Translations under genes and position numbers: made by a program
The notes under the pieces: generated by a model
Database searches by the model: none
What the model saw: only the letters and a program-made list of their open reading frames with translations
Told to the model about the DNA's origin: nothing
Source of the DNA: Rugalucina vietnamica
Lineage: Eukaryota > Mollusca > Bivalvia > Lucinida > Lucinidae
Direction of reading: 5' to 3'
DNA length: 64,000 nucleotides
NCBI GenBank assembly: GCA_964017185.1
Contig: OZ024879.1
Coordinates: 46,301,383-46,365,382, forward strand
In this document: one piece after another, positions 12,110 through 57,729 of the stretch
How positions within the stretch are numbered: the stretch's first letter is position 1
Layout: the number at the start of each line of letters is the position of its first letter

Positions 12110-12402
12110 AGGTGATAGTTGGCAGTGATCAGGAATGGCACAAAAGAAAGAAACATCCTCGCAAAACCGAGTTGGGGACAAAAACTCGTTATGCGGGGCA
12201 ATGTCTGGGGGAAAATAGATTTTGCGAGTATTTAGTCATTTTGTGTCCAGGTAATTTCTTGACCACTTTGGTCATTTTGTAACCACTTTATATCCATTTT
12301 GGTCATTTCGTACCTACTGCTATCATTTCGTACCTGCTTTTATGTTATCTTTAAGATTTGTTAAGATTAAGTCATTTCGTTATCTAGTTTTTTCACATTC
12401 AT
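12110..12402. repeat. R1 remnant plus degenerate 'GGTCATTTCGTACC' repeats
   Basis: 12120-12200 is a diverged R1 piece (ggcagtgatcaggaatggc, aaaaccgagttgggga). At 12232-12340 a word close to GGTCATTTCGTACC recurs about six times with decay. Similar words occur at 29905-30330. Confidence 0.5.
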
Positions 12403-13480: not shown

Positions 13481-13743
13481 ATGCAATTGTCAGTTTCTCA
13501 GCTACTCATTTCTTTTCACTCACTAACTCACATTTTGATGACACTGAGGACATTTCACATTTCTGCAGCATGTTGCGATAATGTTATTTACAAGAACCAT
13601 ATTTTATGTAAGTTTTTGCTTTGAATTCTTATGTGCAAATGTCAGTTTCTTAGCTGCTCTTTTCCTTTAACCTAGTAACTCACATTTATTTATCTTTCTG
13701 TTCATTGGCTCCTTTGCAATGTTGAAATCTGAATTAGTTAACA

Positions 13744-14022
13744 CATCACGAAAACATATCAGTGCAATGTATACCCCCTCATACCCCACTTTTATATAGA
13801 AAAACTGGGTTTTGCAGGGGTATACTTAATTTTATTATTTTTCATCAACAACGTACATTATCATGGGTACTCTTTATAACTGCCTCGCCGAGGCTGTTCT
13901 AATGTGTACCCACTCTGTATTTTTGAGCAAATATAGTAAACATATCAATTTTCTTACACTGAAATTTTCAATTTTTTCAACTGAAAAAAATCTGTATATT
14001 GCATGGGCAAGTTTTCGTAATG
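13744..14022 (+). mobile_element. MITE-A, copy 1
   Basis: 279 bp. Begins CATCACGAAAACATATC and ends GGGCAAGTTTTCGTAATG; the ends are imperfect inverted repeats of about 25 bp. Internal landmarks are 'gtatacccc', 'aaaactggg', a central GGGTACTC...GCCTCG/CGAGGC hairpin, and 'tttttgagcaaa'. The length equals that of the copy at 22556-22834. No coding capacity. Confidence 0.8.
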
Positions 14023-14108
14023 ATTGTGTAGTAAAATAACAAGACATTGGCACCAGTTCTAGCTATGGGCATTGTTTTTCCACTAAAATTGTTTTCAAAA
14101 TAATTATT

Positions 14109-14857
14109 TCCCTTAAGGGGATGCCAATTGTTAAAATCTAATACTTGTATAATTTTACCTGTATAAAGAAAAATGACAATTTTTCCAAGGAGACTGGATA
14201 TTCTTGAAACATTCTTGTATGAGTCATTCAAACATCGAATACAGATTATTTTATGCCCAAAAACTCAGCTCTAGAGGGCTCAGCAGCACGCTTATCAGCA
14301 TTGGTCAAGTTACTTCCTGGTTTGATTCCGTTGTCATCTGTCTGGCATGCTGGATAAGTTTTACTAAAAGCTACCACCATAAACATGATCTCCAAAAGCC
14401 AGCCTACAATCTGTGAAAGTTTGTCCACTCGGAGATGATTTCTTCTCGGGGAAAACATGGTATTTATCATATATGCTGAAAACCGTATACAGCAGATACA
14501 GTAAGTAGTATGATTTCTCCCAAAATATTGACTTTTTGTTCAAAATACTATCACAGATTGTAGTCAAGACATTGGAGATCATGTTTACGGTGAAAGCTTT
14601 TAGTAAAATTTATCCGGCATGCCAGACGGATGACAATGGAATCAAACCAGGAAGTGACTTGAACAATGCTGATAAGCGTGCTGCTGAGCCCTCTAGAGCT
14701 GAGGTTTGGGGCATAAAAGAATATGTATTCGATGTTTGAATGACTCATACAAGAATGTGTCAAGAATGCCCAGTCTCCTTAGAAAAATTGTCATTTTTCT
14801 TTATACAGGTAAAAATTATACAAGTATTAGTTTTTGACAATTGGCATCCCCTTAAGT
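14109..14857. mobile_element. Foldback B: 750-bp near-palindrome
   Basis: The left arm (14109-14420) and right arm (about 14548-14857) are inverted copies with high identity. Ends are CTTAAGGGGATGCCAATTG and its inverse. Other paired words are 'ctctagagggctcagcagcac' and 'aacatcgaatac'. The loop is roughly 125 bp. A transcript would fold into a hairpin of about 300 bp. It lies about 85 bp downstream of MITE-A copy 1. Confidence 0.8.
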
Positions 14858-14879
14858 GACAAGTGGCACCTGGCACATA

Positions 14880-15930
14880 CATTTCAGCCTATTTGGAACT
14901 CTTGACTGATGAATTATTAAACCATTTAGTATGTGAGAGTCGTTTTGTTTAATAATACATGTTTACTAATTACATGTATTAGACACTATTAAGTGCTTCT
15001 GCCAAGATTTCAGTTTTGCTGTATACATGAAAGTAAATTTCATAAATATGTTCATAGCTAGAATTAAAAAGGCTTGGGTCCACGTCCCGGTGCTGGTAAC
15101 ATTTTTCATCCATATATAGCCATAATGCTAGTGACATTGTGTAACCTGCATGACACTTCATATATATACCGGTAGTCACCATGCTGTAGTGCTTGTAATG
15201 TTTTCACTTTAACATTGTGTAGCTTGCTTTGCACTCCTCATCCCTTTAGCTTGTAGTACCTTCACTCTACACATAAACAGCTATTAGTCCAAAAACAGTG
15301 TTAGTATGGAACAGCAGTTTAACACCATCAATTAATAAAAAAATCAATTATACATAGAACCAGTGTTTCAATGTTTATGCATCTTTTTGGCATTGCTTGA
15401 ATATTTACCCATTACTATAGAGTAATAAAACCAAATATATGATGGTTGGCTTTTTCATTTTTTAAAGTTTATAATCTCTGTCATTTAAAGGGGTTTTATA
15501 AACTGATTTTTTTTTCCATTTGTTTGACCCCAATCAGACGCTGCATTATGAGTCATTTGATATCGTGACACAGTGGGTTACACTATAAATCACTATGCTG
15601 TAGGGCTATTTATATGAATGAGGAATGGCTGAAAGCCTATTTATAACCCAACTACTATGCATAATTTTTGGGTATTTTGTATTTCTTATAATCCTACATC
15701 AAAAACTATTAGGAAACAGCTGTTTGTTATTTTCTATTTCCATAGCTTGGTAAAAAGTTTATATTTTCGTAGACATCAGAGAGTCAGTAACAAAATGCAA
15801 TCATTTAACTTGGAAACCTTGATAATTAATCTTGAAGCAAAGATCATAAAGAAATGATTATTATCTTAACTTATGATTGAATTCAGTTGAATTGAGCATC
15901 CATGCATCTCCAGTATAATACCGGGTAGTT
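14880..15930. other. Unassigned AT-rich sequence
   Basis: No supported exon, RNA gene or repeat. Short open frames here have no recognisable motif. Confidence 0.5.
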
Positions 15931-15934
15931 TTTT

Positions 15935-17034
15935 GTCCCCCGCCTTTTCGAAGAAAAGCGGAGGGACATAGTTTTTGGCTTTCCGTCCTTCCGTCCGTCC
16001 TTCCGTCCGTCCGTCCGTCCTTCCGTCCGTCCTTCCGTCCTTCCGTCCCCCTATAGGAGTATGTACCTTGTGTGCGCAACTCCTACAGTTTTATTCCGAT
16101 TCTTTTGAAACTTCACAGATGTCTTCATCATGCTTTGAAGATGTGCATGTGGTTTGGATATAATCCTCAGATTAATTTTTGACACTTTTTTCGCAATTTG
16201 AACTTAGTCATTTTTCGGGCATTTTGATAATGAAAGTGAATAGACAGTGGGTACCTTGTGTGCGCAACTCCTCCTACAGTTTTATTCCAATTCTTTTGAA
16301 ACTTTACAGATGTCTTCATCATGCTTTGAAGATTTGCATGTGGTTTGGATATAATCCTCAGATTAATTTTTGACACTTTTTTTGCAATTTGAACTTAGTC
16401 ATTTTTCGGGCATTTTGATAATGAAAGTGAATATACAAAGGGTACCTTGTGTGCGCAACTCCTCCTACAGTTTTATTCCGATTATTTTGAAACTTTACAG
16501 ATGTCCTGATCATACTTTGAAGATGTGCATGTGGTTTGGATATAACCCTCAGATTAATTTTTGACACTTTTTTTGCAAATTGAACTTAGTCGTTTTTCGG
16601 TATTTTGACAATGAAAGTGAATGGACAGTGGGTGCCTTGTGTGCGCAACTCCTCCATCAGTTTTTAATTCAGATTCTTTTGAAACTTTACAGATGTCTTG
16701 ATGATGCTTTGAAGATATGCATGTGCTTTGGATATAATCCTCAGGTTAATTTTTGACACTTTTTCGCAATTTGAACTTAGTCGTTTTTCAGGCATTTATA
16801 CAATGAAAGTGAATGGACATTGTGTACCTTGTGTGCAAACTCCTCCCTCAGTTTTATTCTGATTCTTTTCAAACTGTACAGATGTCCTCACCATGATTTG
16901 AAGATTTGCATGTGGTTTGAATATAATCTTCAGATTAATGTTTGACACTGTGACATGAAGTAAATGCATGTGATTTGGATATACATTATTGTCAGATATA
17001 TTTGTGTAACTAAACAATTAAGGCGGGGGACATA
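15935..17034 (+). mobile_element. Pearl-like element with 190-bp tandem core
   Basis: Starts GTCCCCCGCCTTTTCGAAG and ends AAGGCGGGGGACATAA, giving inverted ends (GTCCCCCGCC/GGCGGGGGAC). A (TCCG/TTCCG)n microsatellite at 15983-16047 is followed by five units near 16063, 16249, 16441, 16631 and 16825. Each carries 'ccttgtgtgcgcaactcctc', 'ttttgaaactttacagatgtc' and 'ttgcaatttgaacttagtc'. Non-coding. Confidence 0.8.
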
Positions 17035-17154
17035 AATTCTCTGAATTTGCTTGTTTTTTGTGTGATTATTCCATGACTGTTTGGTGATTAGTTAATAGCC
17101 AACAGTCCTTTCACTCAATCTCAGCACCATGGGCAATAGTTTTGACTTTTCACC

Positions 17155-17376
17155 AATTGAGTCCTCCGTCAAACCACCCATCATTAATATTCATTTTATA
17201 TTGACCATTCAAATCTGCACATTAGCTAACGGTCAATGACGGTTAGACAACACGTGGGTTAGACAAACAAACCAACACGTGCTTTTTACAGGTAAATATA
17301 GGTGCAAAAACACAATGTTTGTCTAAGGAAATAGGGGTGGGCGTGGCTATACCTTGCTGGCGGAGGACTCAATTAC
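17155..17376. mobile_element. Small MITE with 14-bp inverted ends
   Basis: AATTGAGTCCTCCG at 17155 and CGGAGGACTCAATT at the right end are exact inverses. About 222 bp, AT-rich centre, no coding sequence. Confidence 0.65.
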
Positions 17377-17379
17377 AAC

Positions 17380-18200
17380 CATAGAATAATCATATATTAG
17401 TCACACCTGTATTCTAACCCTGCTTTAATATGTATGCACAACAGGTTTATATTCTTTGGCTTCTTGAAAATACATGTGCTTGTATTTACATTTCTTGAAA
17501 TGCATCTTTTGAAACTTAAAAAACTTCAAATACTTAAGACGCAATCAGACATGCACAGAATACATTTTATTTGAAGACACAGAATTTGAAAAAATTAGGA
17601 CTTCTGAGCGAGCATTAAACCAATGCATATATGCATTGTTGTGGCCGGGCATAAGTTCCACATACATGTACTTTTAGCCTTAAATAATCGATAAAGGTCA
17701 GTTGGACAAAAACTATATCTATATATTATTTAGTTTTATTTAACTTTTTGGGGAAAATGCATATGGGTCATAACCAGACAAAATAATCTGGCCTTGGACT
17801 TTAAAGGAACATAATTAATCGATGTGGCAAAATTTATACTGCACTAGTAGGTCGGAATAGGGGAAGAAATAAAGATTTAATTATGGCCATAGTGAAGCAT
17901 ACATTTGACACATTGTGGTCAAATTCATTTCATTATGTATATATGAGCCACATGATGAGATAACCTGTTTTTGTGAGGAACAAACAGGCCACACACAAAC
18001 AAGCTTGTACAGTCACAGAAAATTGAAATTTCAGGTAAAAGAAGAAGAGGGATTTTACTATTTATGATGCAAAAATAAATTCGCTGATCAGCTGTGTAGA
18101 TACTGATCAGCTGTGCAGTGTGCTGTTTACTGCATAGCTAATCTTTATATGTAAAAAGCAAGTTTTCTCATGATGGGGCTCATAAATTTCTTGTTTGTAT
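17380..18200. other. Unassigned stretch before the Helentron gene
   Basis: AT-rich, with no exon or repeat I can support. The 5' terminus and promoter of the Helentron should lie here, but I could not recognise a terminus like the TTAGCTCACCTGAG of the non-autonomous elements. Confidence 0.4.
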
Positions 18201-18264
18201 GATTTTTAATTTGGAAATAAAAAAATTCAGATTGAAGCCTTTGTAGATCATCCTATGTGAAAGT

Positions 18265-18321
18265 ATGAATCGCCGTAAAAAAGAAGCCGACAGAGAGAGG
18301 AAACGTCAAGCAAGAGGCTCT
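18265..18321 (+). CDS. Helentron first coding exon (basic leader)
   Basis: ATG at 18265 opens 19 codons (MNRRKKEADRERKRQARGS), ending at a donor-like GTAAAT at 18322. It joins in phase 0 to the acceptor at 18721-18722 (ttggtttcag), giving ...ARGS-TTMNQV. The strongly basic composition could serve as a nuclear signal. No other ATG exon was found before the protease domain, but translation could also start at the ATG at 18729. The assignment rests on splice borders and phase only. Confidence 0.4.
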
Positions 18322-18722
18322 GTAAATGTATGTTGTTGTAGATTTGATTTACTACATTTATATATTTGTAAACTATAAAATGAGCTGCTATGATAGGAGT
18401 GAAAACATTTTAATTAGATTTTATATAAAAGCTTTATTTCTATGGCAATGCTTCCAATTCTGCTTATAGAAGAATGACATTAAATTTTGTCAGTTAGTCA
18501 CTTAGTGGTTATAGAAAGAAAAATTTCCAAAGTTTTGGTAGTACGTCTAAGGGATACTTGCCCCTGAACAGTATGGCTAGGATAGATGACAATGTCAACA
18601 TGACCTTAGCTGTTTACCATGCACATAAAGCACTAAATTAAATAAATAAAGTTGCTTTTGTTGTAAATTAAGTTCTTTTCTTTTGAACAGTTTTTTACAA
18701 TTAAATAAACATTTGGTTTCAG

Positions 18723-19916
18723 ACAACAATGAACCAGGTGATCTCTCTGATTGGTACAGATGACAGTGAAATACCAGATGATGTTATTCAGTATGTATTG
18801 ACCCTGATGCAAGCGCATAATACACAACAGCTCAACATCGGGTTTTATACACCAGCTGAGATTATGCTGATGACAAGTCAACGAGATTACATTCATACAC
18901 TGAACAGAAGCATACCTAGAACTGCTAGTTCTGTTCTAATACATCCCTTGACAGGACATTGGGTGACGTCATATTATGATGTTTATACTAAACAAGTAAC
19001 TGTGTATGATTCCTTACTCAAAGATAGTCATTGTGCTGAAGTAAAAACTCAAATCAAATTAATATATGGAGAAGAAATTGCATCAATCATAAGGTATGGA
19101 AATGTAACTCAACAGAATGTTTTGCCAGTTTGTGGGGTACTTGCCATTGCATTTGCAACATCATTGTATTTTGGAAAGGACCCAGAATCAGTAAAATATG
19201 ATATTTTAAAAGCTAGAAATCATTTGAAATCATGTCTTGTTAGTGGCCTTATTCAACCATTCCCATCTAAACAGTCACAATCACAGCTTCCACAGAACAA
19301 AAAAAGTCAAACTCAATTTCATCAAGAACATGATCTTTTAGACTCATACTTTATGGATCAAACATACAAGAGAGAAAGAAAAAGGCTCTTGTCTGACCAT
19401 AATGTTTCGGATCTACCAACAAAAAAAGCCCGGACATGTACAAGTAATAGTTCTAGAGAAAGGAAAATAAGATCAAGACAGAATCCTATTGTACATGAAA
19501 GAGAAAAACAATGCGATAGGAAGAGGAAACATTTACAAAGACAAGACAAACAGAAGAAAAATGAAGAAAATATAAAACAAAGAGAGTACAGACAAAAAAT
19601 GAGGCAGAATGAAGAAATAAGGAAAAGTGAAAGACAAGCAGAGAAAGATTATAGACAAAAAAGAAGACAGAATGAAGAAATAAGGAAAAGTGAAAGACAG
19701 GGGCAGAAGGATTATAGACAAAAAATGAGACAAAATGAAGAAATAAGGAAAAGTGAAAGACAGGGAGAAAAGCATTATAGACAAAAAATGAGACAGAATG
19801 AAGAAATATGGAAAAGTGAAAGACAGGGAGAAAAGCATTATAGACAAAAAATGAGACAGAATGAAGAAATAAGGAAAAGTGAAAGACAGGGACAGAAGGA
19901 TTATAGACAAAAATGA
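18723..19916 (+). CDS. Helentron C48/Ulp1-like cysteine protease with charged repeats
   Basis: The frame is open from the acceptor at 18721-18722; the first internal Met is at 18729. The N-terminal 180 residues look like a C48 (Ulp1/SENP-type) peptidase. His77 lies in PLTGHW, Asp94 in VYDSLL, Gln129 six residues before Cys135 in QNVLPVCGVLA. That His-Asp-Gln-Cys set and the Gln-Cys spacing are the family signature. A Ser/Gln-rich and then basic linker follows, then repeats of a 21-residue unit (RQNEEIRKSERQGEKHYRQKM). The frame ends at 19916 because one A is missing from the six-A run found in the other repeat units, and the sequence continues in the next frame. In Helitrons, cysteine proteases are accessory; their substrate is unknown. 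Confidence 0.8.
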   Translation, partial: TTMNQVISLIGTDDSEIPDDVIQYVLTLMQAHNTQQLNIGFYTPAEIMLMTSQRDYIHTLNRSIPRTASSVLIHPLTGHWVTSYYDVYTKQVTVYDSLLKDSHCAEVKTQIKLIYGEEIASIIRYGNVTQQNVLPVCGVLAIAFATSLYFGKDPESVKYDILKARNHLKSCLVSGLIQPFPSKQSQSQLPQNKKSQTQFHQEHDLLDSYFMDQTYKRERKRLLSDHNVSDLPTKKARTCTSNSSRERKIRSRQNPIVHEREKQCDRKRKHLQRQDKQKKNEENIKQREYRQKMRQNEEIRKSERQAEKDYRQKRRQNEEIRKSERQGQKDYRQKMRQNEEIRKSERQGEKHYRQKMRQNEEIWKSERQGEKHYRQKMRQNEEIRKSERQGQKDYRQK

Positions 19917-20353
19917 GACAGAATGAAGAAGTAAGGAAAAGTGAAAGACAGGGAGAAAAGCATTATAGACAAAAAATGAGACAGAATGAAGAAATAAGGA
20001 AAAATGAAAGACAAGCAGAGAAAGATTATAGACAAAAAAGAAGACAGAATGAAGAAATAAGGAAAAGTGAAAGACAGGGACAGAAGGATTATAGACAAAA
20101 AAGAAGGCAAAGTGAAGAAATAAGGAAAAGTGAACGACAGGGACAAAAGCATTATAGACAAAAAATGAGACAGAATGAAGAAATAAGGAAAAATGAAAGA
20201 CAAGCAGAGAAAGATTATAGACAAAAAAGAAGACAGAATGAAGAAATAAGGAAAAGTGAAAGACATGGACAGAAGGATTATAGACAAAAAAGAAGACAAA
20301 GTGAAGAAATAAGGAAAAGTGAAAGACAGGGACAAAAGCATTATAGACAAAAA
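19591..20353 (+). repeat. 63-bp coding tandem repeat, about 12 units
   Basis: Units begin at 19591, 19654, 19717, 19780 and 19843 and continue to about 20350 with a period of exactly 63 bp (21 codons). Variants alternate between GEKHY, GQKDY and AEKDY. The encoded repeats are rich in Arg, Lys, Glu and Gln and should form a long charged helix or coiled coil. One unit (near 19905-19912) has lost an A. Confidence 0.9.
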
Positions 20354-21257
20354 AGGAGGGAACACGAAAACATAAGGAATATGGAACATAGGACAAGAAA
20401 ACATAATATAGAATTGAAGCAATCAGAAATAGACAGGGTAATCCAGCAGTTCAAAGAAAACTGTAAACAAATGCCAACTTTCATATGTGTAATTTGTTAT
20501 CGGCAGTTGTTTAAAAAACAAGTTAAAACATTTACATTCTCTAAATATGATGATTCTGAATGTGTTTCTGAGTGCCTGAGAGCAAACAAATTACATCAAT
20601 GCAGACCTAACTGTAACAAAAGTTGCCCAGAATGCGCAAGGTGGATTTGCTTTACCTGTGATAGATACTTGCTTCTGAATAAACTCCCTAACCAAGCATC
20701 AGTGAATTCTCTTGCTCTACCAATACAACCACCATGTTTGGCAAATTTAAATACAATTGAGAAGCATCTTATTACGCCAATTATACCTTTCATGAAAATT
20801 ATACCTTTACCAAAAGGTCTACAAAAAGGTCTCCATGGACCAGTTGTGTGTGTTCCTTCAAACCTGTCATCAGTCACTGAGGTTCTACCCAGACAGCTTT
20901 CTGACGAAACTCTGGTGAAAGTGTTAGGGAGCGCGGTGGCGTAGTGGTAGAGCGTCGGACTCCGAATCGAGAGGTCCTGGGTTCGAACCCCACAAGCGTC
21001 ACCGTGTTGTGTCCTTGAGCAAGGCACATCTACTCCCTACAGTACTGGTTAAACCCAGGAAGCGTTGGCTCCGTCCCGACATGACTGAAAAATTGTTGAC
21101 TGGGACGTTAAGCCTCAACACAAACAAACAAATCTGGTGAAAGTGAAATTGAAAAGAAAACTTGAATACAGAGGACACCATCTTTTCCAACAAGTGTCAT
21201 TGCAGAAGTTGAAGAATGCACTGGAGTACCTCAAAGCATACAATCCATACTATAAAG
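19913..21257 (+). pseudogene. Helentron repeat/DUF6570-like exon, split by a SINE
   Basis: Continuation of the protease-repeat protein after the A-run frameshift. After more 21-residue repeats comes a Cys-rich region from about 20460: CVIC, then CVSEC, then CRPNCNKSCPEC and CFTC, likely zinc-binding. This leads into PPCLANLNTIEKHLI, IPFMKIIPLPKG and GPVVCVPS, a block typical of DUF6570 domains seen at the N-terminus of Helitron proteins. A SINE enters at 20924, and its TAG at 20942-20944 stops the frame. After the second target copy the same protein resumes (VKLKRKLEYRGHHLF ... LKAYNPYYK) up to a donor at 21258. The exon ends in phase 1. Confidence 0.8.
20924..21145 (+). mobile_element. tRNA-derived SINE with 13-bp target duplication
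   Basis: The SINE (20924-21132) is followed by the second copy of TCTGGTGAAAGTG (21133-21145); the first is at 20911-20923. A box TGGCGTAGTGG lies near 20937 and B box GGGTTCGAACCCC near 20980. The body has 'ccttgagcaaggcacatct' and 'ctgggacgttaagcc', and the tail is (CAAA)n. The total insertion is 222 bp, a multiple of three, but it carries a stop. A truncated head of the same family is at 47404-47447. Confidence 0.95.
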
Positions 21258-21364
21258 GTAATTTAATTGTTATCATTCACTGTAAATTATTGTATACTAT
21301 TAACAAAAGCTTTATATATTGTCACTTTGATGTCTGATATAATTTTGACCAATTTAAAGTTTGT

Positions 21365-21990
21365 TGTTGCCTCACGATCTCCATCTTCGGGCAGCTTACT
21401 GAATCTGATTATCTGTGAGTCCTGGTTTTTGATTCATCAGGATGTTCCTATCTTTTGAAGCTCAAGGTATATATTTTGTACCAAAATGCACTGGGCAGCC
21501 TGAATCTGTGTCCTGGTTTTTAATTCATCAGGATGTTTATCATGATTTATATGTTTCTTCTTGATGATTCATTGACTAGTTAGAGATTCACCACGAAGAC
21601 CGAAGAACTAACTAAATATTATGAAACACTGCAGAAGCTGAGGGTGAGGTTATGGCCATGTAAAACCGATTTAAACCTGCCAGTAACTTTTTGTTACTGA
21701 TTGTTCCAAGTCGATACTTATGTGGAGGTATTTTTTGTTTTATGTCTTGGTGTTTAAAATTTTTGTGCTGTTGGCGCCTTATGTATGTTTTCATATTTTT
21801 AATTAAGTTAAGGTAACTGAGTGGCCACCTATTGGGAAAATAGCTGATCATTTGGCTTTATACGAAATGTTCTCATGGTATAAGTACCTGATTGTTAGGG
21901 GGTTTTTTTCCAACCTCGGTTTTTGGAGTGGGAATCTTTTTTCTGATTACGCCTTTTCCTGATCTTTGCCTACTTGTACCTTTTAATATT
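21365..21990 (-). repeat. R1, long copy in a Helentron intron
   Basis: The longest R1 copy with the one at 63322-63830, of which it is the inverse. Beyond the usual R1 it includes 'tctccatcttcgggcagctta', 'gactagttagagattcacca' and 'gaaacactgcagaagctgagggtgagg'. It lies in the intron after the DUF6570-like exon. Confidence 0.8.
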
Positions 21991-22044
21991 TGCTTTTACA
22001 CAGTTATTTGCACTATGACAGTTATTTGCTCTTATGTTTCACAG

Positions 22045-22176
22045 ATATAACAGTTGATATGGCTTCATCTCGTATTGACCCAGAGGGAGAAGGAAACATC
22101 CTCATACCAGATGACCAGCAGTTTGACAGAAATTTACTGACCACATTATCTGAGGATGAAGATTCAACTCATCAAG
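22045..22176 (+). CDS. Helentron cassette exon a
   Basis: 132 bp between a CACAG acceptor and a GTATTT donor. It starts in phase 1 (G|AT) and ends in phase 1 (CAAG|gt). It encodes ITVDMASSRIDPEGEGNILI and then an acidic Ser/Thr-rich tail (LSEDEDSTHQ). It joins the upstream exon (..YYK-D) and the Rep exon (..HQ-DVSES) without changing frame. Five related copies follow one another. The sequence is acidic and probably unstructured; I recognise no domain. Confidence 0.7.
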
Positions 22177-22440
22177 GTATTTATTTAAAACATTGAAGTA
22201 AGAATACAGGGTCCAGAAATTTATAGAATGAATTTTGTTTCTCTTTGGTAAGTGAATTATCTATCAAACAAAGGCTTTTAAGGGCCACTTTGATGTCTGA
22301 GCTATTTTTGACCAATTTAATTTTTTTCTTGGCTTCACAGACAGAGAAACAGCCTCATCTTTTTCATCATCCAGTGAAAGCTAAAATCTGAATTTCAATC
22401 CTAATTTCCATTTCACAGTTATTTGCACTATGTTTCACAG

Positions 22441-22852
22441 ATATTACAGTTGATATGGCTTCATCCTGTACTGACCAAGAAGGAGAAGGAAACATCCTCA
22501 TACCAGATAGCGATCAGTTAGACAGAAAGTTACCGACCACATCATCTGAGGATAACATCAGGAAAACATGCCCGTGTAATGTATACCCCCTTGAACCCCA
22601 CTTTTATATAGCAAAACTGGGGTATGCAGGGGTATACCTATTTTTCTTATTTTTGCTCCAAAACATAGATTGTGGGTACTCGTTAGAACCGCCTCGACGA
22701 GGCGGTTCTAACATGTACCCACAATCTATGTTTTGAGCAAAAATAAGAAAAATATCAAAATTTTTCAGCTGAAAATTTTCAATTTTTTTAGCTCAAAAAA
22801 TCTTTGTTTATTGCATGGACAAGTTTTCGTAATGAACATTCAATTCATCAAG
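22441..22852 (+). pseudogene. Helentron cassette exon b, split by MITE-A
   Basis: Starts after CACAG at 22440 and ends at CAAG|GTATTT at 22852, as in the other copies, but a 279-bp MITE-A (22556-22834) sits inside. The remaining 133 bp match the 132-bp exon, with perhaps a 1-2-nt duplication at the insertion. It encodes ITVDMASSCTDQEGEGNILI before the break. Confidence 0.7.
22556..22834 (+). mobile_element. MITE-A, copy 2
   Basis: 279 bp from CATCAGGAAAACATG to CAAGTTTTCGTAATG. The centre is a nearly perfect hairpin: the two arms share 'agattgtgggtactcg' and 'ttagaaccgcctcg' with their inverses. It is inserted in cassette exon b. Confidence 0.85.
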
Positions 22853-22989
22853 GTATTTATATAAAATGTTGTAGTAAGAATACAGGCTCCAGAAATTTAT
22901 AGATTGATTTTTTTTTCATTTATTGAGTGAATTTTCTATTTATATCCAAAGGCTTTAGAGCCATTTTGACATCTGAAATACTTTTGACC

Positions 22990-23150
22990 AATTTAAAAAA
23001 AAGCAATGATCAAGAAATGGCGCAATCAAAAAGAAACTCCCACTCCAAAACCCGAGGTGGGAAAAAACAAAATTAACAATCAGGTACTTGCACTTGTAAC
23101 ATATTGCAAGCTGAATGGGCAGCCATTTTCCCGAAATGTGGCCACAAAGT
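22990..23150 (+). repeat. R1 remnant in cassette intron
   Basis: Contains 'caatgatcaagaaatggcgc', 'ccaaaacccgaggtgggaaa' and 'aacaatcaggtacttgca'. The same piece recurs after the next cassette exon at 23505-23670, so R1 was present before the exons were duplicated. Confidence 0.7.
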
Positions 23151-23228
23151 TTGTTGTAGACTTTAGAATTTAATATTTGCTTTTTCACAGTAATTTGCAT
23201 ATGACAGTTATTAAACTTTGTTTCACAG

Positions 23229-23360
23229 ATATTACAGTTGAAATGGCTTCATCTCATAGTGACCCAGAGGGAGAAGGAAACATCCTCATACCAGATGACG
23301 ATCAGTTAAACAGAAAGTTACCGACCACATCATCTGAGGATAAAGATTCAATTTATCAAG
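23229..23360 (+). CDS. Helentron cassette exon c
   Basis: 132 bp, phase 1-1, acceptor CACAG and donor GTATTT. It encodes the same acidic peptide type as exon a, with the variant MASSHSDPEGEG and tail SSEDKDSIYQ. Uninterrupted. Confidence 0.7.
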
Positions 23361-23504
23361 GTATTTATATAAAAAATTGTAGTAAGAATACAGGCTCCAG
23401 AAATTTATAGATTGATTTTTTTTTTCATTTGTTGAGTGAATTTTCTATTATCCAAAGGCTTTAGAGCCACTTTGACATCTGAAATACTTTTGACCAATTT
23501 AAAG

Positions 23505-23670
23505 AAAGATTAAAAGTAAGCAACGATCAAGAAATGGCGCAATCAGAAAGTAAACTCCCACTCCAAAACCCGAGGTGGGAAAAACAAAATTAACAATCAG
23601 GTACTTGCACTTTTAACATATTGCAAGCTGACTGGGCAGCCATTTTCCTGATAGGTGGCCACAAATTTTG
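23505..23670 (+). repeat. R1 remnant in cassette intron, second copy
   Basis: Near-duplicate of 22990-23150, produced together with the cassette exon. Confidence 0.7.
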
Positions 23671-23746
23671 TTGTAGACTTTAGAATTTAATATTTGCTTT
23701 TTCACAGTAATTCGCATTATGACAGTTATTAAACTTTGTTTCACAG

Positions 23747-23878
23747 ATATTACAGTTGAAATGGCTTCTTCTCGTAGTGACCCAGAGGGAGAAGGAAACA
23801 GCTTCATACCAGATGACGATCAGTTAGACAGAAATTTACTGACCACATCATCTGAGGATAAAGATTCAATTCATCAAG
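23747..23878 (+). CDS. Helentron cassette exon d
   Basis: 132 bp, phase 1-1, acceptor CACAG and donor GTATTT. Variant MASSRSDPEGEGNSFI with tail SSEDKDSIHQ. Uninterrupted. Confidence 0.7.
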
Positions 23879-24162
23879 GTATTTATTTAAAACATTGAAG
23901 TAAGAACACAGGGTCTAGAAATTTATTGATTGAATTTTGTTTCCCTTTGGTAAGTGAATTATCTTTTAAACAAAGGCTTTAGAGCCACTTTGATGTCTGA
24001 CCTATTTTTGACCAATTTAATTTTTTTCTTGGCTTCACAGACAGAGAAACAGCCTAATCTTTTTCATCATCCAGTGAAAGCTAAAATCTGAATTTCAATC
24101 CTAAAATTTTTCCATTTCACAGTTATTTGCACTATGACATTTATTTGCTCTATGTTTCTCAG

Positions 24163-24294
24163 ATATTACAGTTGATATGGCTTCATCTCGTATTGACCCA
24201 GAGGGAGAAGGCAACATCCTCATACCAGATGACAACCAGTTAGGTAGAAAGTTACCAACCACATCATCTGAGGCTAGAGATTCAATTCATCAAG
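24163..24294 (+). CDS. Helentron cassette exon e
   Basis: 132 bp, phase 1-1, acceptor CTCAG and donor GTATTT. Variant MASSRIDPEGEGNILI with tail SSEARDSIHQ. It is the last copy before the Rep exon at 24909. Confidence 0.7.
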
Positions 24295-24299
24295 GTATT

Positions 24300-24908
24300 T
24301 AAATTCTTATTGGATTTATCGAGTGAATTATCTATTATCTGATTGATTCTTATTGGATTTATCGAGTGAACTATCTATTATCTGATTGAATCTTATGTTT
24401 CAGTTAAACATTTATCAGAGATATGGTCCATGTAATTCATTATATGGCTTAGACCATCTGTAATTTATTTGTAGTCTTTCTTAGAAGCAGAAGATCTATG
24501 TGACTTTTGAAAAGCTATTTAAAAGAAAGCTCACAAGCTGACTCATATTGATTAAAAAAACACCATTACTGAAACCATACTTCTCTTTTTTCATTCATTC
24601 AATATATACATCACAATAATAGTAAATAAGTCCAGTTGTGTCAGTGAAGACTGATGAACCCTATTATCTGTCACGTCACGGATATTAGTCTAATTACACA
24701 ATATACTGCCTTAAACATTTTCCTTTCTTTCAAAGAAGAAAACATTGTTTGTTCATAAGGCTAAGAGTCCTCTTGTTCCTAATGTGCCCAACAAAGATTC
24801 TGACCATACTAGTTATTGGAATAGTATGATCTTAATCGTTGTTTGAGGCATTTCTGAATATAGTCAGGCTTTCTGATGATATTACTTGTGTCATATTTAC
24901 TGTTTCAG
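24300..24908. other. Intron before the Rep exon
   Basis: Contains a short direct repeat (ttattggatttatcgagtgaa, twice at about 24307-24400) and ends with the acceptor ttactgtttcag at 24908. An open frame continues upstream of the acceptor to 24839, but it is intron sequence. Confidence 0.6.
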
Positions 24909-27900
24909 ATGTATCAGAGTCCTCAGCACCTATGGTGTCATGCCTACAACCAGAGGATCTGCAACAATCACAGCAGGATCCAAATGACCATATATCACTA
25001 GGTCCTGGCGAGGGACAAACTCCGTGTAGTGTTAATCAAGAAATGAAGATTTTTCCATACCTCTTTCCAGACGGAGTTAATGGTTTTAATGAAACCAGAA
25101 ATACCAAACTTGGACTGGGAAGATACTTCAATAGTAGACTGTTCAGTAAAGACAATAGATTTGCTAGTGATCCACAGTATATTTTTTTTGCCCAATACCT
25201 ACAAGAATTGAATAATATCAATAGTGCTATTAGTATTGCAATGAGAAAAAGCTCAAAGAAAACGGTAGACACTAATAATGTTACGGCTGGAATGATAACA
25301 GATTCAAGTCAGCGAGACAAGCTTTTGAACTCCGATAAAGGTTACAGATACCTCAAAGCAATACGAGGATCACCAACATATTGGCAAAAAGTCTTAAGAG
25401 ACCTTTTTGCAATGCTAAAGCAGTTAGGAATACCGACATGGTTTTGTAGCTTTTCCGCAGCAGACAGGCGATGGCCTGAGATTCTTGAAGCGATTTGTGT
25501 CCAACAAGGTCTACCTATACCAGAAAATCCAGACTGGACCGAATATTGTGAGATAATTAATGCTAATCCAGTTACAGCGTGTCGCATGTTTGAATCGCGT
25601 GTGTTGTCATTCATTTCTACTGTCATCTTGTCACCAGCAAAGCCCATAGGGGAAGTCATAGATTTTTTCTACAGAACAGAGTTTCAAAGTAGAGGTTGGC
25701 CACATATACATTGCCTTTTTTGGTGCAAAGAGGCTCCAAAATTTGACAGTTCTACTGACAATAAGGAATTTATAAGTTACATTGACAAATATATAACATG
25801 CGCTATTTCAAATCAAGAACAGGAGCCTGATTTCTATGAAATTGTGTCAAGTGTTCAGTTACATTCAAAGAGTCACTCACGATCATGTAAAAAAGGAGGA
25901 AAGACGTGCCGTTTCAATTTCCCCAGGCCCATTGCCAATGAAACATTTATAGCAACACCAGCCTCTCCTCCAGAAGATATTTGTCCCATCTTGTTTAAGA
26001 AAAATGCTACAAATTTGCTAACCTCAGTTTGGGATGCTATGAGCTCTCCTGATTGCACATATAAAAGTGTTGAAGAGGTATTTGAACAGCTGAATGTTAC
26101 ACACGAACAGTATGAAAAAGCACATTGTGCTCTGGCGCAAAGAAATACCATCATTTTCAAGAGAACAGTACCAGATGTTTGGGTTAATCCTTATAACAAA
26201 CATATCCTTGAGGCTTGGAATGGTAACATGGACATCCAACCTGTGCTAGATGCAGAAAGTTGTCTCATGTATATGGTGAAGTATATCTTGAAGGCAGAAC
26301 GTGAGCTTGGAGATGTACTAAGAAAGGCTCAGCAAGAAGCAGAAGAAGGACATATGGAACCGCTCAAACAACTTAGAAAGCTTGGAAATGTGTATTTGAA
26401 TGCAAGAGAGATTTGTGTAATGGAGGCAGTTTACCGAGTGTGCGGCATGAATTTGAAAAGCAGCTCTCGAGAAACTTTTTTTGTTCCAGCTAGCCAAAAT
26501 AGTGCTAGGATTACTAAGCCTATTTCAGCATTGAAACAGCAAGACACTTCAAGTGAGGATGTATGGATGACAAGCATAATAGACAGATACATTGCAAGAC
26601 CTGAAACTGAAGAGTTTGAACACATTTGTTTGGCTGAATTTGCCAGCAAGTACAAAGTTACTCAAAAATCTGTAAACAAATTTAGTGAAACAGAAGATAC
26701 AGAGAGTCCTACAACCAATGTGTATACACTCCTTGATAACAAAGGAACCATTAAAAGAAGAAAAACACAGGCAGTGATAAGATATCCTGACTGTAACAGA
26801 CAAAAGAAGTCAGAAGATTATTATTACACAATGTTGGCAATGTTTTATCCATGCAGACAGCAAGACTTCAAACCAGAGGATGTTGACACATATGAACAAA
26901 TGTTCCACCAGTTCTCTGACATAATCATACCAAACATGCAGCCTTATGAACAATTATCTGAAGAACTTAGTGATGCTTGGCAAGCTATACAAAATGGTGT
27001 TATACCAGAAGATGCTTGGGCTGAAATTGCTGCTAATCAAGAAGTTCAGAGACTTGAAGAAGAAGAGGAATTAAACAGTATCAGAGCAGAAATATTGGAA
27101 GACATGGAAGAGATAAACATTCCAGATATCTGCCAAGAAGAGGTAAAAGTGCCAAAAAATGCTCCTGCATGCCATACATCCTCCACAAGAACATCACAAA
27201 GTGATCACTGTCAAATGGTGAGATCGTTGAATGAAGAACAGCGTAAATTATACATGTTTATAAAGCATTGGGCTGAACAAAAAGAACAAGAAAATGCTAA
27301 ACCATTCCACATTTTCCTCACAGGTGGTGCTGGGACTGGCAAATCTCACACAATCAAATGTATAATCAATGAAGTTGATCGTATTATGAGTAGAAAAAGT
27401 GAAAATGCCGATATGCCAGTTGTGATTCAGGTTGCCTATATAGGAACAGCTGCTTTCAACATAGATGGCCAGACTATTCATTCAGCTTTCAACATCAGTA
27501 AGTTCTCAGGTGATTTCCTGTCAGAGGATGCAGCCAATACTCTGCGAAGTAAACTACATGATCTTCAGCTCCTTATTATAGATGAAGTATCTATGGTATC
27601 AACAAAACTACTCAATACCATACACTGTAGGCTCCAGCAAATAAAAAGGCCTTCACAACCTAACAGTGTTTTTGGAAATATATCTGTGCTGGCAGTTGGT
27701 GATTTTTACCAAATACCACCAATTTCAGGAAAATCTCTTGTTTCTGTCAACAAATCTCTAACAGATTTGTGGTGCCTTTTCAGTATATGGACTCTTCATG
27801 AAGTGGTTCGACAGAGGGGTGATGATAAATTTACTGAGATGCTAAACAGAATAAGAACACAGCCCCAAAACCAACAACTAAAGCAAGAAGATATGGAATT

Positions 27901-29350
27901 TCTTAGGAGCAGACTTGTCAGTGAAATATCTCCAGATTTTCCCAGACACATTCTACATATAGCCCCACTTCGTAGGCAAAGAGATGCTCATAATGCTGAA
28001 ATGCTGAAGCTTATTTCAGAAAAACAAACATTGTATGAAATAGAGGCAGTAGATATTTGTCATGATAAGAAAACACAGAAAACCTACAGAAGAAACGATC
28101 CTCTGAAGGTAGAAGATGCTACTATACCTGCCCATTTTTCCGTATGTGTTGGAACTAGAATCATGCTCACAATGAACCTGGATGTCTCAGATGGCCTTAC
28201 TAATGGTGCAATAGGCACTGTTTCAGCTATTATCCCAGGGCATATGCCACTAGGCCAGCCAGCAGCCATATGTGTAGTATTTGATAATGAAAAGGTTGGC
28301 ATCAAGTCCAGAAGCAAAAACAAGCCTCCACCACATGTGGATCAGAGATCAACAGTAATAACACCAGTGACAGAAGTAATTCAGTCATCTCCATATGAAG
28401 TGACCCGCCATGGTTATCCATTTATTTTAGCATGGTCAGTTACAATGCACAAAGTACAAGGTATTACAACAGATAAGGCCCTTGTATCATTGAAAGGTAT
28501 TTTCAAACCAGGAATGGCATATGTAGCTCTAAGCAGAGTAACAAGTGGCAAAGGCTTGTATCTCCTGGACAGTGACTTTGACCTTAATGTTATATATAGT
28601 AACCCAAATGTAAAGAAACAGCTTGACTCAATGCCTAAGGCAGACTCATTACCAGAATGGAAAATCCTTTTCAAGGCAGATGAAATAACTGTGGATCCTG
28701 AGACCCTTATTCTAGCAAGCCATAACTGTGAGGGATATTTACCCCATTTACAAGACATTAAACAGAATAATTTCCTACAAAGAGCAGACATCATAGCCCT
28801 TCAAGAGACGTGGACTTCCTCTGGCATGACCCTCACAAGTCTATCAGAAAGACATGTCCCAGTATTCAAACACAGAGATTAGGTTTCTCATGTGACACAG
28901 GGTGTACAAGGTGGTGGAGTAGCAATATTTGTTCATGAGGACTTTGATTACAGTGTTATAGATACATCTTCTATCAATCTGGAATGTATTGGGATAGAGG
29001 TGAAATCACCCCCAATGTCTGTATTTAGCATCTACAGACCACCACATCTCCAACTAGCAGAATTCTGTAAACAGATAAATTTGGTTCTCAAATGTATCAA
29101 AACCCGCTTCTCAGTGTTAATGGGGGACTTTAATGTGAATCTCTTAAATGAAGTCAACAACAAACTCAAGAACACTCTGTCAAACTATAGCCAGGTTATC
29201 TGCTCTCCAACAACTAGAAAAAATACACTGATTGACCATATCTACATAAAGGGTCAGGAATATGTGCCTACACAGTCTGGGATTGTTCCAACATACTACA
29301 GTTTCCATGAAATGACATTTGTATCTATTAACACAGGCTCTGGTATCTGA
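24909..29350 (+). pseudogene. Helentron Rep-helicase-endonuclease, one internal stop
   Basis: The exon starts at the acceptor before 24909. Residue numbers below count from 24839, the start of the open frame. The Rep part has the HUH motif in GWPHIHCLFW (286-295), a HSRSCKKGGKTCRF segment (347-359) and the paired tyrosines Tyr478 and Tyr482 in YMVKYIL, the usual two-Tyr nickase site. The SF1/Pif1-like helicase has Walker A GGAGTGKS (829-836), Walker B LLIIDEVSMV (911-920), VGDFYQIPP (about 953-961) and the late motifs VTMHKVQG and YVALSR. It should nick and unwind DNA for rolling-circle transposition. A TAG at 28880-28882 interrupts the C-terminal APE-like endonuclease, which continues in the same frame to 29350. 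That domain has LQETW before the stop and MGDFNVN and LIDHIY after it. The final SDH motif reads SFH here. Confidence 0.9.
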
Positions 29351-29550
29351 GAGACACAGAATCCTGTAGCATAGAAAACTTCTCCAGATTAACCTTCAGC
29401 TGTGCCCAGGGTTTCAAGCAAGTGAGTATATAAATTGCTGTATGCAAGGAAAGAAAGTACAAGAAATTTAAGAATTTTATTGTTACCTTACTAACACAGA
29501 AAATATTCTCTGCAGTTTCATTTCATTGTAAATTTGCAAAGGCCAGATGT

Positions 29551-29590
29551 CAGGTGAGCGCTCACAGGACCAATGGTCCTCTCGTATTAC
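29551..29590 (+). other. Probable Helentron 3' terminus with hairpin
   Basis: CAGGTGAGC at 29551-29559, then the hairpin AGGACC-AAT-GGTCCT at 29566-29580, then CTCGTATT. The same arrangement ends the elements at 2028-2066 and, inverted, 37604-37630. It lies about 200 bp after the last codon of the endonuclease. It could instead be a solo end of a non-autonomous copy. Confidence 0.65.
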
Positions 29591-30815
29591 ATGTTCAGTT
29601 TGGATTTTATAAAAAAATATGAAAAAAGAATAGATAATAATCTTTTATCATATATTTTTTCACAAATACCTCTGTGCAATTTAGTGTATAATCACACATA
29701 CAGGATGTCTTGACTGGATCTTAAAAGATTGTTATTCCATACACACTGCCTTTTAAGTATTTTGATCCTTCTGGCCCCAAAAAGGGGGGAGACATCTGTT
29801 TTTTTCCTAGAAAAACAAATTCTAGTTTCAAACCTGTTTTTGTTTTTATTTCTTTTAAAACTTATTATGCTCATTACGTATTTAGTTGTTGTTGTTGTTG
29901 TTTTTAAATTTCCGTACCCAAGTAATTTTGTACCAACTTTGGTGATTTTATACCCAGGTCAATTTGTACCTAGGTTCGAAATGACTAAGGTCCGAATATA
30001 CTTAATTTAATTTCACTTAAACTGGTGCAAACTGACTTGGGTACCAAATAATTGTTTTCATTTAGGGTTCAACCTTGTTCGAGCAAGACAGAAAAAAGAC
30101 AGTTGTATATGCTGTATATGCTGCAATTGTTATCGGAATGGATAGTTTGAGTTCCTTTAAGAGTAGCGAAAACCTAATGCAGTGCAAAATTACAGAAATA
30201 TTTCACCAAGCTTTTAGGTGCGAATCGACTTAGGTACGAAATGATTGCTATTTTGGCGCGAAATGACCAAACAGTGGGCATGAAATGACCAAAGATGTAA
30301 CGGAATGACCTGGTGGCGAATTGACTGGAATCCGTTTGGCGAATGCCCCATAAATACGACGCGAGGGTTGCGAGTTTTATGCGCTGCGGTTTTCATTGCT
30401 GTGAAATAATTAATTGAGATATAGCGTTTGATAGTTTTATATTTTGCTCAAAAAATAAATTTGTTTGAATTTATGCTTTATGTCCCAGTCAACTGCTATG
30501 GTCATATCAGGACGTTGCCACTGTGTTTTGGGACTTTTACAAAGACATCCAAAAATGCTTCAAATATAATCACCAAAGTAAGTCACAAAGGGTTTATGTA
30601 TTGATGTGTTTGACAAGAAACCACTTTTCCTGGGAAGGCTCAGACCTGAGTGGTTAAACAGTAATCAGATGGACAGTCAGTAGCGCAAAAGCTTTGCCTC
30701 AGGATCATCTATTTCTTTGGGTCCCAATGAACAGGGACGCATATTCCTAACCGATCGTCCTTAAAATTATCGAATAGATAAATTAATCATGAGAAACATT
30801 TTATTTTTGTTTCAG
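29591..30815. repeat. Spacer with degenerate 'TTTTGTACC / GGTACGAAATGACC' words
   Basis: At 29905-30005 short words like 'aattttgtacc' and 'tttatacccagg' recur in one orientation. At 30220-30330 the inverse words ('ggtacgaaatga', 'gcgaaatgacca', 'atgaaatgacca') recur. The two clusters face each other. Similar words are at 12232-12340. Otherwise no gene. Confidence 0.45.
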
Positions 30816-37603: not shown

Positions 37604-39404
37604 AAAGGACCATTGGTCCTGTAGCTCACCTGAGATATTATCACATTGTAAGCTCATGAGATTTAAATTAATTGAGAATCGACCAATGAAAGTCTATGCA
37701 TGGACACTATTGACTCCCGGGGCATGGCCAAATTTGACCCAGGGGCATGAGCGGCACAATTTATAATGGGGACTACCAAACATTGCTACATACAAAATAT
37801 AGAAGCTCTGGGCCTTTTGGTTTCAGAGAAGAAGATTTTTTTAGTTTTTCCCATTGTAAGTGTATGGAGACTATCTACCCCCGGGGCGTGGCCAAATTTG
37901 ACCCCAGGGGCATGGCTGGCACAATTTATGTAGAGGACCATTAGCCATTGCCACATACAAAATATCAAAGCTGTGTGCCCTGTGGTTTCAGAGAAGAAGA
38001 TTTTTGAAATTTTTTCCCAAAGCAAGTCTATTGAGACTATCAACTTCCGGGGCCTGGCCAAATTTGACCCCAGGGGCATGAGTGGCACAATTTATGTAGA
38101 GGACCATTAGCCATTGCTACATACCAAATATCAAAGCTGTTGGCCTAGTGGTTTCAGAGAAGAAGATTGTTTTAGTTTTTTTCCTATTGTAGGTCTATGG
38201 AGACTATCGACCCCCGGGGCGTGGCCAAATTTGACCCCAGGGGCATGATTGGCACAATTTATGTAGAGGACCATTAGCCATTGCCACATACAACATATCA
38301 AAGCTGTGGGCCCTGTGGTTTCAGAGAAGAAGATTTTTTAATTTTTTCCCATAGTAAGTCTATGGAGACTATCAACCCTTGGGGCGTGGCCAAATTTGAC
38401 CCCAGGGGCATGAATGGCACAATTTATGTAGAGGACCATTAGCCATTGCTACATACCAAATATCAAAGCTGTGGGCCTAGTGGTTTCAGAGAAGAAGATT
38501 TTTTTAGTTTTTCCAATTGTAAGTCTATGGAAACTATCCACCCCCGGGGCGTGGCCAAATTTGACCCCAGGGGCATGGCTGGCACAATTTATGTAGAGGA
38601 CCATTAGCCATTGCCACATACAAAATATCAAAGCTGTGGGCCCTGTGGTTTCAGAGAAGAAGATTTTTTATTTTTTTCCCATAGTAAGTCTATGGAGATT
38701 ATCGACCCCCTGGGGCGTGGCCAAATTTGACCCCAGGGACATGAATGTCACAATTTATGTAGAGGACCATTAGCCATTGCTACATACCAAATATCAAAGC
38801 TGTGGGCCTAGTGGTTTCCGAGAAGAAATAAAATATAAAGGTTTGATCCTTTGGAAGCAGTAAAAACATTCAAAGGGAGATATTATGGACTATATTGCAC
38901 AATTTCGGGTAATGAACCCTCATCAGTAGCCCTTTTTAAACCGGCAACGAACGCCAGACTATTGTGTGCTCCAATTTCGAGAATTTACATGAGGAGTCTA
39001 AATCAAAGACATATTCCTAAATTGGGTCAAATATGTTTAAACATTGCTTAGAAGTATGTTTCTAAACGTGAGTGTTTTGAACGCTCTGAATATCTTTACT
39101 GATCTCAAAGGACCGAAATAAAAATACAATCTTTTTAGATTTTTTTAGTTTTTCCCATTGTAAGTCTATGGGACCTATCTGTTGCCATGGAAACCACAAT
39201 TTTGATACAATCTGCTCCAAAACCTAATGCCATCAATCCCCCAACCCAATTATGGTTCACAATAAATTTGATCAAGATCGGCCTACTAGCTTCAGAAATA
39301 TTCTTCTTTGAAATTGTGGACAGACGACGGACGGACGACGACGGACGACGGATGCCTGCCTATCCTATAAGCTCACCTGTGAGCCTTCGGCTCAGGTGAG
39401 CTAA
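37604..39404 (-). mobile_element. Non-autonomous Helentron-type element 2
   Basis: Read on the minus strand it begins TTAGCTCACCTGAGCCGAAGGCTCAC at 39404, has a (CCGT)n-like tract near 39320-39350 and a tandem core, and ends CTCAGGTGAGC followed by AGGACCAATGGTCCT (37606-37620, read in reverse). It splits the 187-bp array, whose sequence resumes on both sides. The junction falls in a T-rich word (TTGTT/TTTATAT). Internal sequence at 38840-39120 is unique in the window. Non-coding. Confidence 0.8.
37690..38830 (-). repeat. Dimeric higher-order array (about 168-bp units in A-B pairs)
   Basis: Seven units, with 'atatcaaagctgtgggcc' near 37797, 37962, 38130, 38299, 38460, 38628 and 38797. Even units read 'ttgccacatacaaaatatc ... 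ccctgtgg'; odd units read 'ttgctacataccaaatatc ... cctagtgg'. The two types alternate without exception, so the true period is about 335 bp. Confidence 0.85.
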
Positions 39405-48822: not shown

Positions 48823-48890
48823 CTGAAAATATAAATAATTTTTAAAAAGGTTTATGAAAAGGAGTTCGAGCTTGAGTTATGCCGGATGTT

Positions 48891-57720: not shown

Positions 57721-57729
57721 TATATAATA

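What the first reader, a model, noticed from the sequence alone, without database searches (positions are those of the whole stretch)
29551..29590. Helentron and non-autonomous elements share a 3' terminus
About 200 bp after the Helentron's last codon lies CAGGTGAGC plus the hairpin AGGACC-nnn-GGTCCT. The same pair ends elements 1 (2028-2058) and 2 (37606-37630, inverted), and a decayed form ends element 3. These three are non-coding, carry (CCGT)n and tandem cores, and sit in T-rich targets. The Helentron family in this window is therefore a good candidate for the machinery that moves this pearl/HINE-like family.
Basis: partly seen in the sequence, partly recalled or inferred. Interest (0 to 1): 0.8.

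Follow-up and report, generated by a model that had tools for sequence, protein, structure and literature searches.

The report
Two Helentrons and their satellite-carrying offshoots
The marked sequence is not the end of the jumping gene in this stretch but a leftover scrap of another repeat inside it; the same genome holds a different, gene-carrying jumping element with exactly that repeat's two ends, the likely engine behind a repeat family whose end motif occurs some 25,000 times.

Summary
The motif is real: CAGGTGAGC plus AGGACC-AAT-GGTCCT lies 201 bp after the Helentron's stop codon and matches the 3' ends of elements 1 and 2. It is not the Helentron's terminus. Five other copies carry it internally (one with part deleted); window, A, C and D end together 241 bp further on, at GGGGGGAGACAT...TTCTAG|T, 29825. 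The window copy is a 17,424-bp Helentron, F1 (12402-29825), with 12/12-bp subterminal repeats, microsatellite and 156-bp array; its non-coding partner H1 belongs to another family. The motif is a ~73-bp relic of a HINE end that has 24,842 exact copies.
It starts TTAGCTCACCTGAGCC and ends CTCAGGTGAGCGTTTACAGGACCAATGGTCCTCTGG|T (3' end seen in 14 of 15 copies, 5' end in 7 of 8). F4 has Rep, PIF1 and endonuclease, a CCGT microsatellite and a repeat shared with element 1.
An oyster study left autonomous partners of such elements unresolved (PMC7492417); here two pairs with distinct ends are visible in one genome.

The parts
12402..29825 (+). Complete Helentron (family F1), 17,424 bp, with nested insertions
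   Evidence: Same ends as copy A (17,432 bp, C1); flanks of the two copies unrelated over about 1.5 kb upstream and 1.3 kb downstream
12404..12433 (+). 5' subterminal inverted repeat ATGTCTCCCCCC (12404-12415) and its IR GGGAGACAT (12425-12433); 12402-12437 folds at -21 kcal/mol (RNA parameters)
   Evidence: 933 exact copies of this 31-base end in the genome, 0 for the reversed control
12450..12980 (+). GTCY microsatellite (12450-12501) and 156-bp x 3 tandem array (12507-12980)
   Evidence: copy A has 6.2 and HINE H1 7.8 units of the same 156-bp period
18705..20944 (+). Upstream ORFs: protease-like (recalled resemblance, no Pfam hit), repeated basic stretch, DUF6570
24836..29350 (+). Rep (Helitron_like_N) - PIF1 helicase - EEP endonuclease; in-frame stop at 28880-28882 in this copy, the frame is open in copy A
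29512..29584 (+). The finding: internal relic, 3'-terminal piece (~73 bp, 5' limit by eye) of an AGCTCACC-family HINE
   Evidence: L007/L008 align to 29514-29603 and 29514-29592 at 84-86%; present in copies A-E, with part of the hairpin deleted in B
29784..29825 (+). True 3' terminus: subterminal repeat GGGGGGAGACAT (29784-29795) and hairpin CTAGAA-n7-TTCTAG (29807-29825)
   Evidence: Window, copies A, C and D diverge right after TTCTAG, each followed by T; B and E are broken off before it
106..2062 (+). Element 1: AGCTCACC-family HINE
37606..39404 (-). Element 2: AGCTCACC-family HINE inside a 188-bp satellite array
48890..51470 (+). Element 3: AGCTCACC-family HINE, 3' hairpin decayed (end approximate)

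Best explanation
The window holds a complete rolling-circle transposon (Helentron F1, 12402-29825) whose own ends are TTATGTCTCCCCCC and GGGGGGAGACAT...TTCTAG. The AGGACC hairpin at 29551-29584 is a fossil: the last ~73 bp of an AGCTCACC-family HINE that entered the 3' untranslated part of an F1 ancestor and has been copied along since. Two separate Helentron/non-coding pairs exist: F1 with the GTCTCCC HINEs (H1), and F4 with the AGCTCACC HINEs (elements 1-3). Shown: the boundaries, the shared ends and microsatellites, the shared array (F1/H1) and shared repeat (F4/element 1), the coding domains, the end-motif counts. Inferred from Helentron biology: each family's Rep/helicase nicks at the 5' junction, peels a strand, stops at its own 3' hairpin, recognises its own ends, and so moves HINEs with the same ends in trans into T-rich sites.
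For: Copies A-E carry the AGGACC motif internally, and four F1 copies (window, A, C, D) end together at 29825. 5' end shared by window, A and C. H1 (about 1.34 kb, its array filling bases 81-1280) matches F1 in 40 of 40 bp from ATGTC on and 85% of the 3' end, and has an exact empty site GCAATAAT|TTATTTTG in F4 copies L026/L031. F4: 3' ends in 14 of 15 listed copies, all 14 followed by T, and 5' ends in 7 of 8 examined. Terminal ~40 bp: F4 against elements 1-3, 92-95% at the 5' end; against elements 1 and 2, 83-94% at the 3' end; F1 against the same, 52-60% and 47-49% (element 3's decayed 3' end was left out of that table). F4's 456-bp repeat matches element 1 at 1203-1983 at 74-79%. F4 domains. 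Number of AGGACC termini.
Against: F4 did not match the 177-bp array of element 1 (335-1203), the array of element 2, or that of element 3 beyond its 5' end and a 53-bp piece, so the partners share ends and part of the core, not all of it. Copy C has 23 N at its junction and cannot serve as a deletion derivative; only one clean F1-type HINE (H1) was read in full. F1's Rep motif has W where the published Helentron signature has S, and the base before F1's 5' TT is A in 3 of 3 copies, closer to the A|T rule of the proto-Helentron than to a pure TT rule. F4 on C12 has an in-frame stop between an 814-aa and a 1807-aa frame. Movement in trans was not tested. How the relic got in is not known.
Confidence: 0.93

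Rival explanations
1. One reading: 29551-29584 is the 3' terminus of the window Helentron, which therefore moves elements 1-3.
For: Position 201 bp after the ORF and the strong match.
Against: Five other copies continue past it, and window, A, C and D to 29825; the 5' end is a different sequence that matches the 29825 end.
Confidence: 0.02
2. The relic is not an inserted HINE scrap but a former 3' terminus of the F1 lineage: replication once ran past it to a new end, and the element later swapped both ends.
For: Same orientation as the gene; shared by all copies read, including E at 87% identity.
Against: On the gene strand of the F1 copies scanned, no AGCTCACC 5' end within one mismatch, apart from a one-mismatch site inside the coding frame; a minus-strand end in E lies 6.7 kb before its F1 part. 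The other Helentron groups whose ends were reached, apart from F4, end in TTCTAG|T like F1. AGCTCACC elements do insert in Helentron 3' regions (L038). A random insertion is plausible at one exact terminus per 44 kb, both strands.
Confidence: 0.18
3. F4 and elements 1-3 share ends by common descent, but another, unseen Helentron family with the same ends does most of the moving.
For: Only 35 of 634 candidate Rep loci were scored; F4 lacks the TRF arrays of elements 1-3; 15 F4 copies stand against 24,842 exact end motifs.
Against: F4 copies are recent (96-99% identical near the 3' end) and 14 of 15 have no stop inside the matched Rep-helicase region.
Confidence: 0.15

Closest known systems
Helentron / HINE pairs of mite, Culex and Drosophila (Thomas et al. 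2014, PMC4067079; passages read)
   Same: Rep-PIF1-endonuclease protein, subterminal inverted repeats, 3' palindrome, T-rich targets, no TSD seen, non-autonomous partners with the same ends, 5' IR and microsatellite as in DINE-1
   Different: Here the autonomous elements themselves carry tandem arrays next to the 5' end; F1 has 5' TT, 3' CTAG and A before the element, like the proto-Helentron of that paper
Cg_HINE elements of the Pacific oyster and the Pearl family (Vojvoda Zeljko et al. 2020, PMC7492417; passages read)
   Same: 5' subTIR, complementary IR, GTCY-type microsatellite, satellite-like array, 3' subTIR and palindrome, T-rich insertion without TSD
   Different: There no autonomous partner could be related to them; here two are found. 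Sequences could not be compared (supplement and Repbase not available to me)

Membership tests
Helentron (F1, window) | HUH Rep (Helitron_like_N) plus PIF1 helicase | tested here: met
   PF14214 5.3e-31, PF05970 3.1e-25
Helentron (F1, window) | AP/EEP endonuclease fused at the C-terminus | tested here: met
   PF03372 1.8e-10 in the open frame of copy A; split off by a stop in the window copy
Helentron (F1, window) | Diagnostic F/Y-x-R and S between G and P in Rep motif 2 | tested here: inconclusive
   FYR present, but W in place of S: FYRTEFQSRGWPHIH in the window, GWTHIH in copy A
Helentron (F1, window) | Subterminal inverted repeats and 3' palindrome | tested here: met
   12/12 bp; CTAGAA-n7-TTCTAG
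Helentron (F1, window) | TT/T-rich target, no TSD | tested here: inconclusive
   The 3' flank begins with T in 4 of 4 copies, but the 5' flank ends in A in 3 of 3; no empty site for F1 itself, one without TSD for its partner H1
Autonomous partner of elements 1-3 (window Helentron F1) | Shared 5' and 3' termini | tested here: not met
   52-60% at the 5' end, 47-49% at the 3' end of elements 1 and 2
Autonomous partner of elements 1-3 (Helentron F4) | Shared 5' and 3' termini | tested here: met
Autonomous partner of elements 1-3 (Helentron F4) | Shared central sequence | tested here: inconclusive
   456-bp repeat matches element 1 at 1203-1983 at 74-79%; the 177-bp array of element 1 and the array of element 2 not matched, element 3 only by a 53-bp piece
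Autonomous partner of elements 1-3 (Helentron F4) | Helentron-type Rep motif, PIF1, endonuclease | tested here: met
   FYRVEFQQRGSPHIH; PF14214 1.3e-27, PF05970 5.7e-19; PF14529 5.3e-5 and PF03372 7.4e-5, both under their curated cut-offs
Autonomous partner of elements 1-3 (Helentron F4) | Moves them in trans | not testable with these tools
   Needs a transposition assay
Pearl family | Sequence similarity to CvA/CvE/CvG | not tested
   No pearl sequence at hand; resemblance is structural only

The most novel reading that the evidence does not exclude
Satellite-like repeats in this genome are spread by at least two separate Helentron systems, each with its own end code. The autonomous elements themselves carry tandem arrays, so the non-coding satellite carriers are trimmed offspring of coding parents, and scraps of one system's ends are fossilised inside the other.
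Probability: 0.65. Interest if true: 0.68.

Novelty: new member of a known kind. Interest (0 to 1): 0.6.

Why it matters
HINE/pearl elements carry satellite-like repeats in bivalves (PMC7492417). That study could not relate any autonomous Helentron to them, and a later oyster assembly detected no autonomous elements and judged them likely inactive (PMC7992393). Here coding Helentrons with matching ends and recent copies lie in one genome, which makes the source and present activity of such repeats testable. It also warns that an end motif next to a Rep gene is no proof of partnership when that motif has some 25,000 copies.

Tried and rejected
My first scan of 16 other Helentron 3' flanks of about 2 kb found no TCAGGTGA and no AGGnCC hairpin; that negative misled, because F4's end lies about 2.5 kb after its ORF and only the longer stretches reached it (which also found the inverse 8-mer TCACCTGA in 2 of the 16, L038 and L039). 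Copy C was first taken for a deletion derivative, then set aside because of 23 N at its junction. Viral contigs gave nothing: the Rep protein (5 stretches matched a pattern, none confirmed) and both end motifs (0). Printed-motif search: 16 papers listed, none on molluscs by title. Rows dropped by my own cut-offs: under 120 bp; under 85% or 150 bp; under 60 bp; under 150 bp; under 30 bp; under 30 or 60 bp; 92% or less. In one search stretches L056 (3' end not reached) and L062 (no match) gave no end and are counted as misses.

Full report
Observation. The sequence at 29551-29584 reads CAGGTGAGC GCTCAC AGGACC AAT GGTCCT CTCG and lies 201 bp after the stop of the Helentron frame. The 10-mer GCTCACCTGA occurs seven times in the window: at both ends of elements 1, 2 and 3, and here. 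A third-order Markov model expects 0.045 such 10-mers in 64 kb and about 4e-9 joint motifs per strand. The Helentron's downstream region aligns with the ends of elements 1, 2 and 3 at scores 44, 45 and 23, against maxima of 26, 23 and 21 in 1000 simulated regions each. The end of another HINE in the window (15935-17053) scores only 8-11 against these ends, so this is not a generic HINE feature.

Exact ends of elements 1 and 2. Element 1 sits in an interspersed repeat with uninterrupted relatives elsewhere in the window: CCTTTTCCTGATC|TTTGCCTACTTGTACC. Its 3' end is therefore ...GGTCCTCTGG|TTT at 2062. Element 2 sits in a 188-bp satellite. Both lie in T-rich sites with no target duplication detected, with about 3 bp ambiguous at each.

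The window Helentron does not end at 29584. The window's own assembly (G000, 1.09 Gb) answered. The 350-bp query around the motif found the window itself and five further long copies at 92-99%, all running over the whole query, that is past the hairpin; the other 36 of 42 matches were short. Read out (copies A-E), window, A, C and D agree up to GGGGGGAGACATCTGTTTTTTTCCTAGAAAAACAAATTCTAG and then go into different flanks, each beginning with T; B and E are broken off within that last stretch. The 12-bp GGGGGGAGACAT is the exact inverse of ATGTCTCCCCCC at 12404, the start of an unnoticed 5' module with IR, GTCY microsatellite and a 156-bp array. Copy A has the same start (17,432 bp against 17,424 bp) and so does C; D's 5' end was not found. 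Flanks of window and A are unrelated over about 1.5 kb upstream and 1.3 kb downstream. In copy A the Rep-PIF1-endonuclease frame is open over 1503 aa; the window copy has one stop in it.

A non-coding partner of F1. In L030+L040 a 1.34-kb element, H1, matches F1 in 40 of 40 bp from ATGTC on, has a 156-bp array over bases 81-1280, and F1's 3' end at 85%. It interrupts the 3' region of an F4 Helentron, and two uninterrupted F4 copies give the empty site GCAATAAT|TTATTTTGAATTAG. The 31-base F1 5' end occurs 933 times exactly in the genome, control 0. Copy C would have been a second partner, but it has 23 N at the junction and is not used.

What the marked motif is. L007, a HINE with the 5' ends and core of the AGCTCACC family, and L008, a 3' end with a 90-bp piece of element 1's core (its 5' end was not seen), match 29514 to 29603 and 29592 at 84-86%. 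The exact terminus TCAGGTGAGC-AGGACC-nnn-GGTCCT-CT has 24,842 copies, one per 44 kb, control 0; how many belong to full-length non-coding elements was not counted. The simplest reading is a 5'-truncated HINE piece in the 3' untranslated part of an F1 ancestor. A former terminus of F1 is not excluded (rival 2). In L038 an AGCTCACC end sits in the 3' flank of a further Helentron where L037 has none, so such insertions do happen.

The real partner of elements 1-3. Protein search with the window Rep gave 36 rows (35 of 634 candidates scored). Fifteen rows share one range (54-1325, 35% identity): family F4. Two F4 copies agree at 98.6% over about 3,040 bp and part at CTCAGGTGAGCGTTTACAGGACCAATGGTCCTCTGG|TT; a third ends at the same place. 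Of 12 further copies, 11 stretches show the same end and one stopped short: 14 of 15 in all, each followed by T. The 5' end, T-run then TAGCTCACCTGAGCC, is seen in 2 copies and in 5 of 6 more. The copy on C12 spans 10016732-10030116, 13,385 bp, with frames of 814 and 1807 aa parted by one stop. It carries a CCGT microsatellite and a 456-bp x 4.3 array that matches element 1 at 1203-1983 at 74-79%. It does not match element 1's 177-bp array or element 2's array, and matches element 3 only at the 5' end and over 53 bp. Its Rep has the published Helentron motif FYR...VEFQQRGSPHIH, with PIF1 helicase and a weak endonuclease match.

Specificity. Identity of terminal ~40 bp: F4 against elements 1-3, 92-95% (5') and, for elements 1 and 2, 83-94% (3'); F1 against H1, 100% and 85%; F1 against elements 1-3, 52-60% (5') and, for 1 and 2, 47-49% (3'); the internal relic against F4, 89%. 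Four further Helentron groups were read at the 3' side. Three reach an end, TTCTAG|T or TTTCTAG|T as in F1; L028 stayed unresolved.

Literature, read as passages only. PMC4067079 defines Helentron/HINE structure and partners in arthropods. PMC7492417: 11 oyster HINEs, none related to any of 10 autonomous elements, relationship 'unresolved'. PMC7992393: no evidence of autonomous elements detected in the oyster assembly. Also PMC5139131, PMC11136912, PMC10294476, PMC12628747 and PMC8268682. In listings 14, 16, 17, 31 and 93 (titles and starts of abstracts) and in these passages I saw no autonomous partner of bivalve HINEs named; the library holds open-licence papers only.

Limits. Copy counts are exact-match lower bounds. 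Transposition and trans-mobilisation are inferred.

Noticed in passing
L055, L057, L060 (3' flanks of F4 copies): In 3 of 11 F4 3' ends another AGCTCACC element begins within about 6 bases, head to tail: insertion of one element at the T-run next to another's end.
   Followed up: no
window 15935-17053: A third HINE-like family (GTCCCCCGCC / GGCGGGGGAC, hairpin AAATTC-TCT-GAATTT, end GCTTG|T) is nested inside the window Helentron and absent from copy A.
   Followed up: partly
window 17157-17374: Small element with inverted ends TTGAGTCCTCCG, absent from copy A.
   Followed up: no
window 21980-24310: A short exon-like unit with splice-like borders appears about five times at 86-91% identity inside the Helentron.
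   Followed up: no
window 13300-17900 against copy A: The 3' part (22832-29828) is 99.4% identical to copy A, but this 5' non-coding part keeps only scattered collinear blocks of 70-88%, as if the window copy were a mosaic.
   Followed up: partly
L024, L025, L029, L034, L037, L039; L027+L044, L032+L043, L045: Three Helentron groups with different subterminal repeats all end AATTCTAG|T, AATTTCTAG|T or ATTTCTAG|T, a possible common Helentron 3' signature that F4 and the AGCTCACC HINEs lack.
   Followed up: partly
G000 C1:5689566-5689626: Two GTCTCCC 5' termini in direct succession, overlapping by one base.
   Followed up: no
window 57646-59824: Three minus-strand ORFs of 210-294 aa without any Pfam match at 1e-3.
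   Followed up: no
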